Origin: an uncultured Prevotellaceae bacterium
GTDB lineage: Bacteria; Bacteroidota; Bacteroidia; Bacteroidales; Bacteroidaceae
Direction: 5' to 3'
Assembly: GCA_902769705.1 (NCBI GenBank)
Contig: CACXPX010000032.1
Location: forward strand, 1-57,230
Length of the DNA stretch: 57,230 nt
The notes beneath the pieces were generated by a model, which was not told the DNA's origin, made no database searches, and was given only the letters and a program-made list of their open reading frames with translations. Within the stretch, counting starts at the first letter, position 1. Each line of letters opens with the position of its first letter. Positions 3,779-57,137 of the stretch are shown here, piece after piece. The position numbers were made by a program, and so were the translations under genes.

Positions 3779-3840
3779 ATGTAATTTTAGCAAATCTCAA
3801 AATAAACCGACTTTTTTTTATTCTTTTGTCAAAAATAATC

Positions 3841-4170
3841 GTAATAATATCGCAGTTGACCCTTTCGGATAAAGAGCGGCCTACAAGGCCAACCCGCTCA
3901 TAGCCCAGTGCAGCGCCCTGGGTGAGAGGCGTGTGAGGAAGGACGCGCTGTAAGTGCAATTGAAGTGCAAGGCGAACCAAGAGCCGAGCTCGCTCGAGCT
4001 ATGCTGAGCCGCAGCCTTCAATCGCTTTAAGCAAAAGCACTACAAGATGCAGGTGCTGTTCCCAATGCTTTTGCCCCTGTTTACTCCCAACTCTCTCCCC
4101 CAAGGCGTTGCCTTGGGCTGGTAGCTACTGCCCCGTCGGGGCGTTTTGGGTCTACTGCTGTATCATTCCC
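3841..4170. repeat. TIR-bounded structured repeat element, copy 1
   Basis: Begins with the left terminal repeat (TAATAATATCGCAGTTGAC) and ends with a degenerate inverted copy (GGGTCTACTGCTGTATCATTCCC region). Inside are several small hairpins: CGG-CCTACAAGG-CC type, CAGTGCAGCGCCCTG, CCAAGGCGTTGCCTTGG and GCCCCGTCGGGGC. It also has a central module with CAAAAGCACTACAAGATG and a nested hairpin GAGCCGAGCTCGCTCGAGC (3981-4016). It encodes no transposase, so it is MITE-like or an interspersed RNA-like repeat. Copies 2 and 3 are at 5603-6004 and 25732-25993. Confidence 0.8.
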
Positions 4171-4334
4171 AAAATAAATTGGCATTTATTTTGTTCTGCT
4201 CTCGATTTTTTCGTATCTTTAGCTTCGCTGAAAGGCTACGGGTAGGCGAACGGAGTTCGGGAATGGATACTTCATCTCGGCATAAAAAATAAATTGGCAT
4301 TTATTTTGTTCTGCTCTCGATTTTTCGTATCTTT
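4171..4334 (+). repeat. 50-bp direct duplication of a promoter region
   Basis: 4171-4220 and 4285-4334 are the same roughly 50-bp sequence apart from the length of one T tract. Each ends at a -7 box: TATCTTTA at 4214-4221 and TATCTTTG at 4328-4335. The 64 bases between them look unrelated. The duplication lies directly against repeat-element copy 1. Confidence 0.85.
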
Positions 4335-5572: not shown

Positions 5573-5602
5573 CGTACAAACACCGCCATCCCATTTTTTT
5601 GG

Positions 5603-6004
5603 GCAATAATATCGCAGTTGACCCTTTCAGATTAAGAGCGGCCTGCAAGGCCAACCCGCTCATAGCCCAGGGCATCGCCCTGGGTGGGCATGGCGCATGA
5701 AGTGCAATTGAAGTGCAAGGCGAACCAAGAAAGCAGCGAGAGCAGAGTCAAGTTCACTTGAACTATGCCGAGTCGCGTTCGAGGTAGACAGATGTCATTG
5801 CAGAGCCGAGCTCGCTCGAGCTATGCTGAGCCGCAGCCTTCAATCGCTTTAAGCAAAAGCACTACAAGATGTAGGTGCTGTTCCCAATGCTTTTGCCCCT
5901 GTAGGGCGCTGGTTTACTCCCAACTCTCTCCCCCAAGGCGTTGCCTTGGGCTGGTAGCTGCTGCCCCCTTCTGGGGCGTTAGGGTCAACTGCTGTATCAT
6001 TCCC
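5603..6004. repeat. TIR-bounded structured repeat element, copy 2
   Basis: Same left terminus as copy 1 (CAATAATATCGCAGTTGAC) and right terminus GGGTCAACTGCTGTATCATTCCC region. The central module is in the same orientation as copy 1. It carries an extra segment at 5735-5784 (a hairpin-rich stretch with GAACTATGCCGAGTCG) that is missing from copy 1 and related to 19341-19379. The nested GAGCCGAGCTCGCTCGAGC hairpin is at 5803-5838. Confidence 0.8.
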
Positions 6005-20586: not shown

Positions 20587-22713
20587 CTATTTAATCAGGA
20601 TTTTCCTTACCGCACCATCCTCCAAACGTTCTATACACACACCCTTTTTATCAGGTTCAAACAGTGTACCGTTCAAATTAAAACGCGCTATTTTTCGAGA
20701 ATAATCATTTTCCCCCTTAATAATCGGAATATCTGTATAATCAAACTCCTTTATATCAAATCCATTCCACCCTCTTTCTTTATATAAGTCTGTTGTTCCA
20801 AGCGGTACGTATAATGTTTTGGGTAATGTATCCTTTATTGGCTCTTTCAATCTTATGGGCATTTCCCAATGAGCATACAAATCCATTCCACCTGTCTCAG
20901 CAAAAGCATACCAACCAATTTCTTTAATTGATAGTGGCAAATGCAAACAAGTTAGTTTTCCACTCCATGCAAAAGCTTCTCGTCCAATGGTTTCCAACCC
21001 TTCGGGCAATTCCATTTTCTCTGCTTTAAAAGAAGCGAAAGCCCTATTTCCAATAGATTTTAGACTTTTTGGCAGGCGTATATCCTTTAATTGGGTGTTG
21101 ACAAAGGCATAATCTCCAATAGAAGTTATATCATCGTTAAAAATCACACTACTCAACTTTGTACATTGGCAAAACAGCCTGTCCGTAATAGCTTTCACAT
21201 CATTTCCTATAACAACACTCTCCACATCTGGAAAGGGAGAATTAGAAGTCGATGTTTGGGAAGATTTCACAGCTAAAAGCCTGTTCATCGTTATAGAACG
21301 TACATTCGGGAAACAATTATCACCTAAAAACAGCGTGTCTGTTCCTTCTTCGAATACAACATTTTCCAACTGTTCACAACCATAAAAAGCATCATCCCCT
21401 ATTTCACGAATACATCCTGGGATTTTTAATGATTTTAATGCCGGACACCCTTTAAATGCATTTTTTCTAATTTCCGTCACAGCAAACGTCTTACCGTTCA
21501 TTTTGACTTTTGAGGGTATAACCAAATGAGTCGTGTTAAAGTTTTCACTGACTCCAGTAATAGAGGCATTACCATCTTTTGTGTAATCCACTTCCAGACC
21601 ATCTTGGAAAAGTGGAGGATGAACATTTACGATAGCCCCCCTTCCATAACTATAGTCGCGACCTTCTAGCGGAACCAGGGAGGAGAGAATGAAATAGCCG
21701 TTATACCTTCCGCCCCATCCCCAGTTGATATGAAAATAACCGTCTGAGCGATATCCATCACAAACAAACAAATGGCCTCTACTGCCCGACCGCCCATGAC
21801 CGTGCATAATCATTGGCCTTCCCATTTCAAGCTCGTGATACATGATTGCTTCAGCATCAGCACCATCAACATTGAGATATTCTGAACCACGATTATAACC
21901 AAAGTTTTCAATTAAAGCGTTTTCAAGTCTATCAATACTTGTGCTGCTGCCGTCTGTCCCATAGGCCATACTTGAAGCAACGCCACAGTCATACATCAAT
22001 TGCGCCACAGCATGGGATTGTTTATCGGTATAGCCACCATTCGGATAGCTATCCAACATGTCCTCCCATTGGTATTCCGATTGCGACAAATCCTCATGAA
22101 TGGTCTTGGTTGCTCCATTCATCTTGAAAGAGTATTCGCAAATCCCCTTTCCCCTTTCAGGCCATTTATGATAATACAAAACCTGAGCCATAGCTGTCGC
22201 TCCACATCCCGTAAAAGTAGAAGCGCCATTTTCGTCCTTCGGGCACAACAGGTTATATGGACTTCCTTGATTCCACGTACATGTTAACAAAGGATTGATG
22301 TCAGACCTTTTTTCATTTGTTTTTTGCAGGGAGCAAGCTCCGGTTTTTGCCCTTATCAATTTGATTTCATGGGAATAACCGTCCAATAACCACGACATAG
22401 CTTCTGGTATATTCTCCCTATCAAAACGACCAGCTTCGCAATATCCCAATACCAAATCCGCCCCCTTCTCTCCCGAAGAAATGACAAAGCCCCCATCTTT
22501 GTTATTGAAAATGTATATTACCGGTTGATTCGCCTCGTCTAGAATTGAGCAACTAAGTTCCAATTTGTCACTCTGGCATAAAGCTTTTAAGACAACATCC
22601 CCCTTAGATGCTTCCTCCAATCCCTTTATACACTCCTGTGGCGATAGAAGTTGCCCATAAATCGTGTTTGCAGCCAATAAAAAAGCTAATGACAAATATA
22701 TTTTTTTATTCAT
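20587..22713 (-). CDS. C10-family cysteine protease (streptopain/interpain type) with BspA-like leucine-rich repeats
   Basis: 708 residues. Signal peptide 1-20. An inhibitory propeptide with the GGFVISSGEKGADLVLGYCE pattern (about 73-95). Catalytic domain with Cys170 in FTGCGATAMAQ and His314 in RGHLFVCDGY, followed by FHINWGWGG. From about 395 to 650 it carries BspA/LRR_5-type repeats (FKGCPALKSLKIPGCIREI). The last residues (ARFNLNG to VRKILIK) resemble a type IX secretion C-terminal signal. Expected role: secreted or surface protease using the repeats for adhesion or substrate binding. The gene is visibly AT-richer than its neighbours, which suggests horizontal acquisition. Confidence 0.88.
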   Translation of the reverse strand: MNKKIYLSLAFLLAANTIYGQLLSPQECIKGLEEASKGDVVLKALCQSDKLELSCSILDEANQPVIYIFNNKDGGFVISSGEKGADLVLGYCEAGRFDRENIPEAMSWLLDGYSHEIKLIRAKTGACSLQKTNEKRSDINPLLTCTWNQGSPYNLLCPKDENGASTFTGCGATAMAQVLYYHKWPERGKGICEYSFKMNGATKTIHEDLSQSEYQWEDMLDSYPNGGYTDKQSHAVAQLMYDCGVASSMAYGTDGSSTSIDRLENALIENFGYNRGSEYLNVDGADAEAIMYHELEMGRPMIMHGHGRSGSRGHLFVCDGYRSDGYFHINWGWGGRYNGYFILSSLVPLEGRDYSYGRGAIVNVHPPLFQDGLEVDYTKDGNASITGVSENFNTTHLVIPSKVKMNGKTFAVTEIRKNAFKGCPALKSLKIPGCIREIGDDAFYGCEQLENVVFEEGTDTLFLGDNCFPNVRSITMNRLLAVKSSQTSTSNSPFPDVESVVIGNDVKAITDRLFCQCTKLSSVIFNDDITSIGDYAFVNTQLKDIRLPKSLKSIGNRAFASFKAEKMELPEGLETIGREAFAWSGKLTCLHLPLSIKEIGWYAFAETGGMDLYAHWEMPIRLKEPIKDTLPKTLYVPLGTTDLYKERGWNGFDIKEFDYTDIPIIKGENDYSRKIARFNLNGTLFEPDKKGVCIERLEDGAVRKILIK

Positions 22714-25486: not shown

Positions 25487-25662
25487 TGTAACATGTAACA
25501 TTTGTAACATGTAACATTAAGGTGGTTCCCATATTCCAAGATGAAATTTCGGTTTTAAATTGACAGATTATATTATATATTATAATAACCCATAGGTATA
25601 GGGGGCGCTTTGCACATGTGGAAGGTGCTTAATGTTACATGTTACAAATGTTACATGTTACA
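25487..25662. repeat. Perfect 35-bp inverted repeat
   Basis: Arms 25487-25521 and 25628-25662 are exact reverse complements. Each is itself built from two TGTAACATGTAACA-like palindromic halves separated by TTT/AAA. The 106-base spacer contains an AT-rich core (TTATATTATATATTATAATA region). It could be a cluster of repressor sites or a replication-like structure. Confidence 0.9.
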
Positions 25663-25731
25663 AAATGTCTTTCCCACCGATATTTAACACATTTTCACAA
25701 TGCACAAAATCGCGATTGAGTGAGCGGATTG

Positions 25732-25993
25732 GCAATAATATCGCAGTTGACTCTTTCGGATAAAGAGCGGCCTGAAAGGCCAACCCGCTCATAGCCCAGG
25801 GCATCGCCCTGGGTGAGAGGGATAAAGCAAACCAACGCCCTACAGGGGCAAAAGCATTGGAAACAGCACCTGCATCTTGTAGTGCTTTTGCACTTTCAGC
25901 GCGTCCTTCTCACATGCCCCTTACCCAAGGCGCTGCCTTGGGCTGGTTGCTGCTGCCCCGTTGGGGCGTTTGGGTCAACTACAATATTATTGC
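25732..25993. repeat. TIR-bounded structured repeat element, copy 3, inner module inverted
   Basis: Here both terminal repeats are clear: left GCAATAATATCGCAGTTGAC and right GTCAACTACAATATTATTGC. The central module (about 25825-25922, with CATCTTGTAGTGCTTTTGC) is the reverse complement of the corresponding module in copies 1 and 2, while the outer hairpins keep the same order. It is inserted in the left copy of the long repeat. Flanking AAAATCGC/AAAATCGC strings may be a target duplication. Confidence 0.8.
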
Positions 25994-26352
25994 AAAAAAA
26001 TCGCCCTTTTTCGCCTGGATTCTTTTTGATTGTGCAAAAGCTATGTAATGACTGCCTCATAGCATAGCTTTGACCAGCTCATTCGTGGTCTTTTGGCAGC
26101 CGCAAAAACAACGAAATAGGAATGTAAAGATTTTTTACCATGAAATTTGGTAGTTCGGATTTTTTTCACTAACTTTGCCATGTAATTCCGAGGAATGTGG
26201 AATGAAGAATGTGGAATGAGAATAGCATGGGAAATGGGGGGCTGAAGAGGTGGTACGCCGGGATGGCGGAGTGAGGAGTCAGGAGTCTGGAGTGAGGGGG
26301 TGAGGATTGCCAAGCGCGCAGGCTATTGTCCAAACTCCTAAACTCCCAAGAC

Positions 26353-34495: not shown

Positions 34496-34570
34496 GGTGC
34501 CCGTAGTTCAGTTGGTTAGAGCGTCAGATTGTGGTTCTGAATGTCGTGGGTTCGAGTCCCACCGGGCACC
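34496..34570 (+). tRNA. tRNA-His (GTG)
   Basis: Acceptor stem GTGCCCG/CGGGCAC, D-arm GTTCAGTTGGTTAGAGC, anticodon stem-loop TCAGA-TTGTGGT-TCTGA giving anticodon GTG, T-arm GTGGGTTCGAGTCCCAC. The extra G at 34496 opposite C73 (34570) is the G-1 specific to tRNA-His. CCA is not encoded. A strong terminator follows at 34579. Confidence 0.95.
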
Positions 34571-56637: not shown

Positions 56638-57137
56638 TTTTTGCCTGCGCGCTTGGCAATCCTCCTCCTCGAACCCTTTTTTCATTTTTCATTTTTAATT
56701 TTTAATTTAGCGAAGCGCTGCTTCCTCTTCAGCCCCCCATTTCCCATGCTATTCTCATTCCACATTGCTTTCCCTCGCTTTGCGAACAGCGACCGTTGGT
56801 TCCTCATTCCACATTCCTCGGAATTGCACAGCAAGTAAAGTGCAAGGCGAGTGCAGAGCCGAGCTCGCTCGAGCTATGCTGAGCCGCAGCCTTTACTCGC
56901 CATGTACCTTCTCAAGTACATGGAAAATCCAATCCTCCAAATTTCATGGTAAAAAATCTTTACATTGCTATTTTGTTGTTTTTGCGGCTGCCAAAAGACC
57001 ACAAATGAGCTGGTCAAAGCTATGCTATGAGGCAGTCATTACATTGCTTTTGCACAATCAAAACGAATCCAGGCGAAAAATGGCATTACCTTTGCGCATT
57101 GTGAAAATGTGTTAAATATCGGTGGAGCAAGACATTG
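56477..57137. repeat. Mosaic long repeat, right inverted copy
   Basis: Reverse complement of the left copy (25664-26401) in the same block order. Between blocks it carries a different insert: the GAGCCGAGCTCGCTCGAGC hairpin (56855-56890) and a perfect CCATGTAC/GTACATGG hairpin at about 56901-56924. The frame running through 56765-57115 looks like an open reading frame but is repeat sequence. Confidence 0.8.

What the first reader, a model, noticed from the sequence alone, without database searches (positions are those of the whole stretch)
25732..25993. Repeat element with terminal inverted repeats whose inner module is flipped in copy 3
Copies 1 (3841-4170) and 2 (5603-6004) have the central module (CAAAAGCACTACAAGATG direction) in one orientation, and copy 3 has its reverse complement (CATCTTGTAGTGCTTTTGC) while the outer hairpins keep the same order. 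Termini are inverted repeats of about 20 bases. This suggests an element mobilised in trans whose interior can be inverted or exchanged. The many hairpins could also make it a structured RNA.
Basis: seen in the sequence. Interest (0 to 1): 0.75.

Follow-up and report, generated by a model that had tools for sequence, protein, structure and literature searches.

The report
Mobile hairpin repeat with two-way core
A small repeat, probably moved by a borrowed transposase, is scattered through the genome of a Prevotella-like bacterium, and its hairpin-rich core points one way in some copies and the other way in others, probably because short palindromes on both sides of the core let it turn round or be swapped.

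Summary
Copy 3 (25731-25994) has the ends and outer hairpins of copies 1 and 2, but its core (about 25821-25923) is their reverse complement. It is not a one-off: of 28 copies examined in this draft genome, 10 have the copy-3 direction, 14 the other, 3 lack the core and 1 has N there. Single outer arms identical over 75-81 bases occur with both directions; on the tree of outer arms the direction changes 8 times, no fewer than with shuffled labels.

The ends are those of an IS1595-family insertion sequence: matching terminal repeats, 8-bp target duplications, and an IS1595 transposase gene in the genome. These are non-autonomous IS1595 elements (MITEs). The cargo is a hairpin cassette found in related genomes, there often a long near-perfect palindrome; in genome G045 it sits between unrelated ends with 7-bp duplications. 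There the loop keeps one direction in all 23 informative copies of 40.

Most likely the core inverts, or is exchanged in flipped register, at palindromes H2 and H3. Template switching is favoured but not shown. Flipping in living cells was not testable. Verdict: new variant of a known kind.

The parts
25731..25994 (+). Copy 3 of the element, core in direction F
   Evidence: no target duplication at this copy (3 of 8 bases)
25731..25753 (+). Left terminal repeat, IS1595 type
   Evidence: 1 mismatch to GGCAATAATATCGCAGTTGACCC
25765..25790 (+). Outer hairpin H1 (GAGCGGCC..GGCC..CGCTC)
25794..25814 (+). Palindrome H2, left border of the flipped core
25821..25923 (-). Core that is inverted with respect to copies 1 and 2 (outer limits; uncertain by about 10-20 bases)
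   Evidence: collinear and inverted BLAST blocks
25834..25850 (+). Core hairpin p (AACGCCCTACAGGGGCA)
25889..25903 (+). Core hairpin q (TGCACTTTCAGCGCG)
25924..25944 (+). Palindrome H3, right border of the flipped core
25956..25968 (+). Outer hairpin H4 (CCCCGTTGGGGCG)
25972..25994 (-). Right terminal repeat, IS1595 type
   Evidence: 3 mismatches
3840..4170 (+). Copy 1, core in direction R; flanking 8-mers agree at 7 of 8
3930..4098 (+). Core of copy 1 (direction R, with module y)
3958..4032 (+). Module y inside the core of copy 1 (AATTGAAG..CGCTTTAAGC); limits read by eye
5602..6004 (+). Copy 2, core in direction R; flanking 8-mers agree at 7 of 8
5687..5931 (+). Core of copy 2 (direction R, with an enlarged y module)

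Best explanation
These are non-autonomous elements (MITEs) of an IS1595-family insertion sequence. They move when an IS1595 transposase made elsewhere acts on their ends (inferred from ends and target duplications). Their cargo is a hairpin cassette that is widespread in related genomes. In this genome the middle of the cassette is bordered by two short palindromes, H2 and H3. Because each border is itself a palindrome, H2 and H3 are at once direct and inverted repeats of each other. Strand slippage, template switching or recombination between them could therefore delete the middle, invert it, or swap in the middle of another copy in either register; both directions, and copies lacking the middle, then spread by transposition. 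Shown: two directions in many copies, including copies that share one outer arm letter for letter; copies without the core; one fixed direction in another genome. Inferred: at least two separate inversions, template switching as the event, and its rate.
For: Directions in 28 copies examined: F 10, R 14, no core 3 (C35b, C15, C31b), N run in place of the core 1 (C14a). Opposite-direction copies sharing an arm: left arms of C47 (F) and C11 (R) identical over 81 bases; right arms of C46 (F), C34 (R) and C35a (R) identical over 75 bases; no such pair is identical in both arms. Direction changes 8 times on the tree of outer arms (23 copies; shuffled mean 7.4; 84% of 1000 shuffles at or below 8) and 6 times on the p-to-q core tree (21 copies; shuffled mean 6.7, 37% at or below 6). 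With the junction spacers kept it changes twice (24 copies; 0 of 1000 shuffles at or below 2), which I read as at least two inversions. H3 stems are complementary in all 26 copies with a right arm (of 28), in two versions (19 and 7) that differ on both sides, as arm homogenisation would give. IS1595 origin: a whole 2469-bp element with the same ends, 8-bp duplication and PF12762 transposase in L169; own-genome IS1595 transposase at C43:6571-7557, 70% identical, no stop, in an element whose duplication TTAGTTTA I read by eye; exact 8-bp duplications at 4 of 12 own pairs of ends and 10 of 31 pairs (any content between them) elsewhere, against 0 of 132 and 4 of 930 mismatched pairings. Arm homogenisation and spacer inversion by template switching between short inverted repeats are described in PMC8604942 (passages read).
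Against: In G045 the cassette has nearly perfect long arms, yet the loop keeps one direction in 23 of 23 informative copies of 40. In G059, read by eye, two loop types (5 and 2 copies of 9 fetched) each keep one direction. So palindromic arms alone do not make flipping frequent. Exact inverted runs between left and right arms are short in this genome: 6-14 bases in 23 of 24 copies, 21 in one. The published yeast inversions changed 2-5 bases, not about 100. Copy 3 has no target duplication, which fits exchange between copies as well as inversion in place. Most branches of the short trees are poorly supported, and the inner tree with spacers may partly reflect junction bases that belong to the arms. 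The assembly is a draft; one copy has a run of N in its core, so some joins could be wrong.
Confidence: 0.62

Rival explanations
1. No inversion in place in recent time: two old core lineages (F and R) exist, and recombination or gene conversion between dispersed copies keeps swapping outer arms around them, so that the same arm is seen with both directions.
For: Whole cores with junction spacers need only 2 label changes, while arms are shuffled (8 changes). The opposite-direction pairs share one arm but not both. Copy 3 lacks a target duplication. One copy, C38a, has left-type arms at both ends, as exchange in flipped register would give.
Against: The p-to-q core without spacers does not separate F from R (6 changes, shuffled mean 6.7). 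Even this reading needs inversions to start with.
Confidence: 0.3
2. A site-specific invertase flips the core as a switch.
For: Two directions exist; such switches are common in Bacteroidales (recalled, no call).
Against: No constant inverted site at the borders: H3 carries CCCAAGGC where H2 carries CCCAGGGC in most copies, exact inverted runs between the arms are 6-14 bases in 23 of 24 copies and vary in sequence, and junction bases vary. No recombinase gene was looked for, and effects on neighbouring genes were not tested.
Confidence: 0.05
3. The flipped direction is an assembly artefact of a draft genome.
For: 72 contigs, several of which start or end inside these elements; an N run inside one copy.
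Against: The ten F copies have different arm types and core contents; an assembler would have to make the same kind of inverted join many times.
Confidence: 0.03

Closest known systems
MITEs of the IS1595 family (ISPna2-like group by host, recalled)
   Same: Terminal repeats of a whole IS1595 element, 8-bp target duplications, no transposase inside, IS1595 transposase in the genome.
   Different: Carries a multi-hairpin cassette in two directions; a homologous cassette sits between unrelated ends in another genome.
BIMEs / REP palindromes (E. coli type; PMC3733652, passages seen)
   Same: Intergenic mosaics of palindromic units.
   Different: Bordered here by transposon ends; no Y1 (RAYT-type) transposase found in the genome.
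Inversion of a spacer by template switching between inverted repeats (PMC8604942, passages seen)
   Same: Inverted-repeat arms are homogenised and the part between them is found inverted.
   Different: The inverted part is about 100-250 bases and spread over many copies; the published cases changed 2-5 bases in yeast genes.
BOX elements of Streptococcus pneumoniae (recalled, no call)
   Same: Modular repeat built of sub-units with variable middle parts.
   Different: No direction change of the middle is known to me; different host and sequence.

Membership tests
IS1595-family MITE | Terminal inverted repeats shared with an IS1595 element | tested here: met
   Same 23-base ends on a 2469-bp element with PF12762 + PF12760 transposase; the own-genome element with the intact gene has less similar ends (4 and 6 mismatches)
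IS1595-family MITE | 8-bp target duplication | tested here: met
   Family level: 4 of 12 own pairs exact, 6 of 12 at 7 or more of 8; 10 of 31 pairs elsewhere exact. Copy 3 itself: 3 of 8, not met
IS1595-family MITE | No transposase inside; transposase available in trans | tested here: met
   Elements are about 110-400 bp; IS1595 transposase gene without stops at C43. That it acts on these ends is not tested
REP/BIME with RAYT | Y1 tyrosine transposase (PF01797) in the genome | tested here: not met
   0 matches in the 99.4% complete genome; the control rang in 5 of 14 genomes
REP/BIME with RAYT | GTAG or CGTC tag at the palindrome | not tested
   no call made
Site-specific invertible element | Constant inverted recombination site at both borders | tested here: not met
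   Longest exact inverted run between arms 6-14 bases in 23 of 24 copies, of varying sequence
Site-specific invertible element | Recombinase gene nearby | not tested
   no call made
Site-specific invertible element | Both directions in one population | not testable with these tools
   one genome per species; long flank matches at best about 80% identical
Known structured RNA | Match to an Rfam family | tested here: not met
   at gathering scores only a tRNA at 34497-34570 in the window
Template-switch spacer inversion | Homogenised arms and inverted spacer | tested here: inconclusive
   Both are seen, but the event was not observed, and another genome with better arms shows no inversion

The most novel reading that the evidence does not exclude
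The hairpin cassette is a mobile module of its own kind, a passenger that MITEs of unrelated families pick up (IS1595 ends with 8-bp duplications here; CTGAACTTTCGC-type ends with 7-bp duplications in G045; a third kind of end, read by eye, in G059), and whose palindromic borders let it be flipped, lost or exchanged between elements, so that the core still inverts in living cells.
Probability: 0.22. Interest if true: 0.68.

Novelty: new variant of a known kind. Interest (0 to 1): 0.42.

Why it matters
Small repeats are usually pictured as fixed units that differ only by deletion. Here one family keeps its ends while its middle is found turned round and swapped, and a homologous middle is carried between unrelated ends elsewhere. 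That offers a natural data set for how palindromic borders cause deletion, inversion and exchange in bacteria, and it warns that such repeats cannot be aligned or assembled as single units.

Tried and rejected
Chance and one-off explanations of the flip: rejected by the copy counts. REP with RAYT: no Y1 transposase. Rfam RNA: no match in this stretch. Gene-context preference: 9 tandem, 6 convergent, 4 divergent, 6 unresolved of 25 copies by a crude ORF caller that reads through masked bases; nothing concluded. Same-locus comparison with relatives: done for the 5.1-kb surroundings of copy 3 only; in 249 genus genomes (own included) the long matches outside our genome reach about 80% at best, and I recognised no orthologous site with or without the element. 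F and R junction words in viral contigs: 0 and 0. Similar DNA in plasmids and phages: only the part from H1 to H4, on one Segatella copri DSM 18205 replicon at 68% and in three unannotated phage records from human faeces.

Literature: the nine searches (one search found no paper) listed none that I could recognise, from titles and starts of abstracts, as describing this element or a flipped MITE core; the nearest title was a Porphyromonas gingivalis MITE with a minisatellite (PMC4596501, listing only). This covers only the held open library. Passages were read of PMC3733652, PMC8101967 and PMC8604942; no paper was read whole.

Rows left out: in the copy count, partial copies at contig ends and fragments seen (for example L034 29-151, L047, L049, L052, L055, L042, L057, L058, L031 1-94, and L050, which overlaps C18) were not used. 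C38a is labelled by its left arm only, because its right end is also a left-type arm, and was left out of the arm trees; the p-to-q tree has 21 of 24 labelled copies because p or q was missing in three. In G032, of 7 places, only the two with IS1595 ends and a readable core were counted; four others have cassettes of the palindromic kind or with other ends, or are cut short, and one has IS1595-type ends but no core. The G059 reading is by eye; its third kind of end was not tested for target duplications. The module seeds were not used further.

Full report
What was checked. The three copies lie at 3840-4170, 5602-6004 and 25731-25994. BLAST of copy-3 parts against the window shows collinear outer parts (copy 3 up to 25820 and from 25924) and an inverted middle (about 25821-25923, against 3930-4098 in copy 1 and 5687-5931 in copy 2). 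The middle of copies 1 and 2 also holds an extra module, y, which copy 3 lacks.

Copies in the genome. The genome (3.6 Mb, 72 contigs, 99.4% complete) gave 78 matching pieces to copy 3. I fetched the places with flanks and read their order of modules. The full order is: left end, H1, H2, core (p, x, sometimes y, q), H3, H4, right end. Of 28 copies chosen for readable arms, 10 have the core as in copy 3 (F), 14 as in copies 1 and 2 (R), 3 lack it and 1 has a run of N in its place. Loop type xA and module y occur in both directions by motif; loop types xB and xC also do, but in one direction each rests on a single copy read by eye (C35a for xB, and the ambiguous C38a for xC). Where p or q and x were both found, the loop turned with p and q, so this is inversion of the whole core rather than change of one arm.

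How often it turned. On a tree of outer arms (23 copies) the label changes 8 times; shuffled labels give 7.4 on average, and 84% of 1000 shuffles are at or below 8. On the core from p to q (21 copies) it changes 6 times (mean 6.7). On the whole core with its spacers (24 copies) it changes twice, and 0 of 1000 shuffles do as well. My reading: direction is independent of the arms, so arms and cores have been recombined, and the spacers next to H2 and H3 record at least two origins of F. Most branches of these short trees are poorly supported, so the counts are guides. The clearest evidence is shared single arms: C47 (F) and C11 (R) share an 81-base left arm letter for letter, and C46 (F), C34 (R) and C35a (R) share a 75-base right arm letter for letter; none of these pairs is identical in both arms.

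What moves it. Among these, one 2469-bp element has ends without mismatch to the pattern, the duplication TAAAATTT and a transposase with PF12762 (E 3.6e-45) and PF12760. IS1595-family members usually have 8-bp duplications (PMC8101967, passages read). Own elements with two recognisable ends have exact 8-bp duplications at 4 of 12 (6 of 12 at 7 or more of 8, against 5 of 132 mismatched pairings); pairs of ends elsewhere, whatever lies between them, 10 of 31 (4 of 930 mismatched pairings exact). Copies 1 and 2 agree at 7 of 8; copy 3 at 3 of 8. The genome has one IS1595 transposase match, 70% identical and without stops, within an element of 2493 bp with less similar ends and, by eye, the duplication TTAGTTTA. 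Contigs C23 and C36 end, and C29 and C51 begin, in ends that resemble the MITE ends better (2 and 3 mismatches); no contig that continues the left one was found. This may be the closer partner.

What the cargo is. A search with the element gave a match, often to the H1-H2 part or the H1-H4 part only, in 20 of 100 genomes, our own being one of them. The H1-H4 part is also on a Segatella copri replicon (68%) and in three unannotated phage records from human faeces, one of them over a third of its length only. In several relatives it is a long near-perfect palindrome. In G045 (one contig; 40 places fetched) it sits between other ends with 7-bp duplications: 6 of 18 pairs exact, 1 of 306 mismatched pairings. 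There the loop, matched with up to 4 mismatches, has one direction with respect to the outer arms in all 23 informative copies, 17 being uninformative. In G059 it sits between yet other ends; of 9 copies, two loop types in 5 and 2 copies could be read by eye, each in one direction. In G032, the two places with IS1595 ends and a readable core, of 7 fetched, are both R. So homologous cassettes are carried between unrelated ends, and both directions are common in this genome but not in the two others with several readable copies.

Mechanism. H2 and H3 are palindromes: of 28 copies, H3 stems are complementary in 26 of the 26 with a right arm, in two versions, and H2 stems in 21 of the 26 read. Being palindromes, they are direct and inverted repeats at once, which would explain both the loss of the core and its inversion. 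Template switching between short inverted repeats is described to homogenise arms and invert spacers (PMC8604942, passages). Exact homology between arms is short here, which speaks against ordinary RecA-dependent exchange within one element, but exchange between copies is open. The main argument against a simple template-switch account is that the better palindromes of G045 do not flip; a recent spread from one master copy there could explain this, but I did not test it.

Other readings. REP with RAYT fails on the missing Y1 transposase. A site-specific invertase fails on the lack of a constant border site, though no recombinase search was made. A structured RNA cannot be excluded: folding is far better than in shuffles for DNA and RNA alike, which DNA palindromes alone would give; Rfam has no match here.

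Verdict. It is a MITE of a known family with an unusual hairpin cargo whose core occurs both ways round and appears to be exchanged between copies: a new variant of a known kind. Flipping in living cells is not shown.

Noticed in passing
26027-26103 and 56985-57060: By eye, the right flank of copy 3 reappears in reverse complement near the window's end, next to a solitary y module (56831-56900); y thus also exists outside these elements.
   Followed up: partly
4171-4210 and 4286-4325: A perfect 40-bp direct repeat just right of copy 1, 115 bp apart.
   Followed up: no
25500-25521 and 25628-25649: A perfect 22-bp inverted repeat (ATTTGTAACATGTAACATTAAG) with 106 bp between, left of copy 3.
   Followed up: no
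20587-22713: A predicted C10-family cysteine peptidase with a Spi-type inhibitor domain and BspA-type leucine-rich repeats.
   Followed up: no
L259 1394-3886 (own genome C43), L226, L169: Elements with IS1595-type ends that carry ORFs other than the transposase; some hold a KKQVIRLTESDL-like stretch; the four such ORFs of L226 and L169 that were tested have no Pfam match.
   Followed up: partly
L031 4519-4859 (own genome C38): A copy with a left-type arm at both ends, perhaps the product of exchange in flipped register.
   Followed up: partly
own genome, L036 and L056: A second kind of border (GGACATTAGCCTCAAGCAAAGAG-like on the left, GTTACGAGGTTCCTCC-like on the right) around the same cassette, without inverted ends that I could recognise.
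   Followed up: partly
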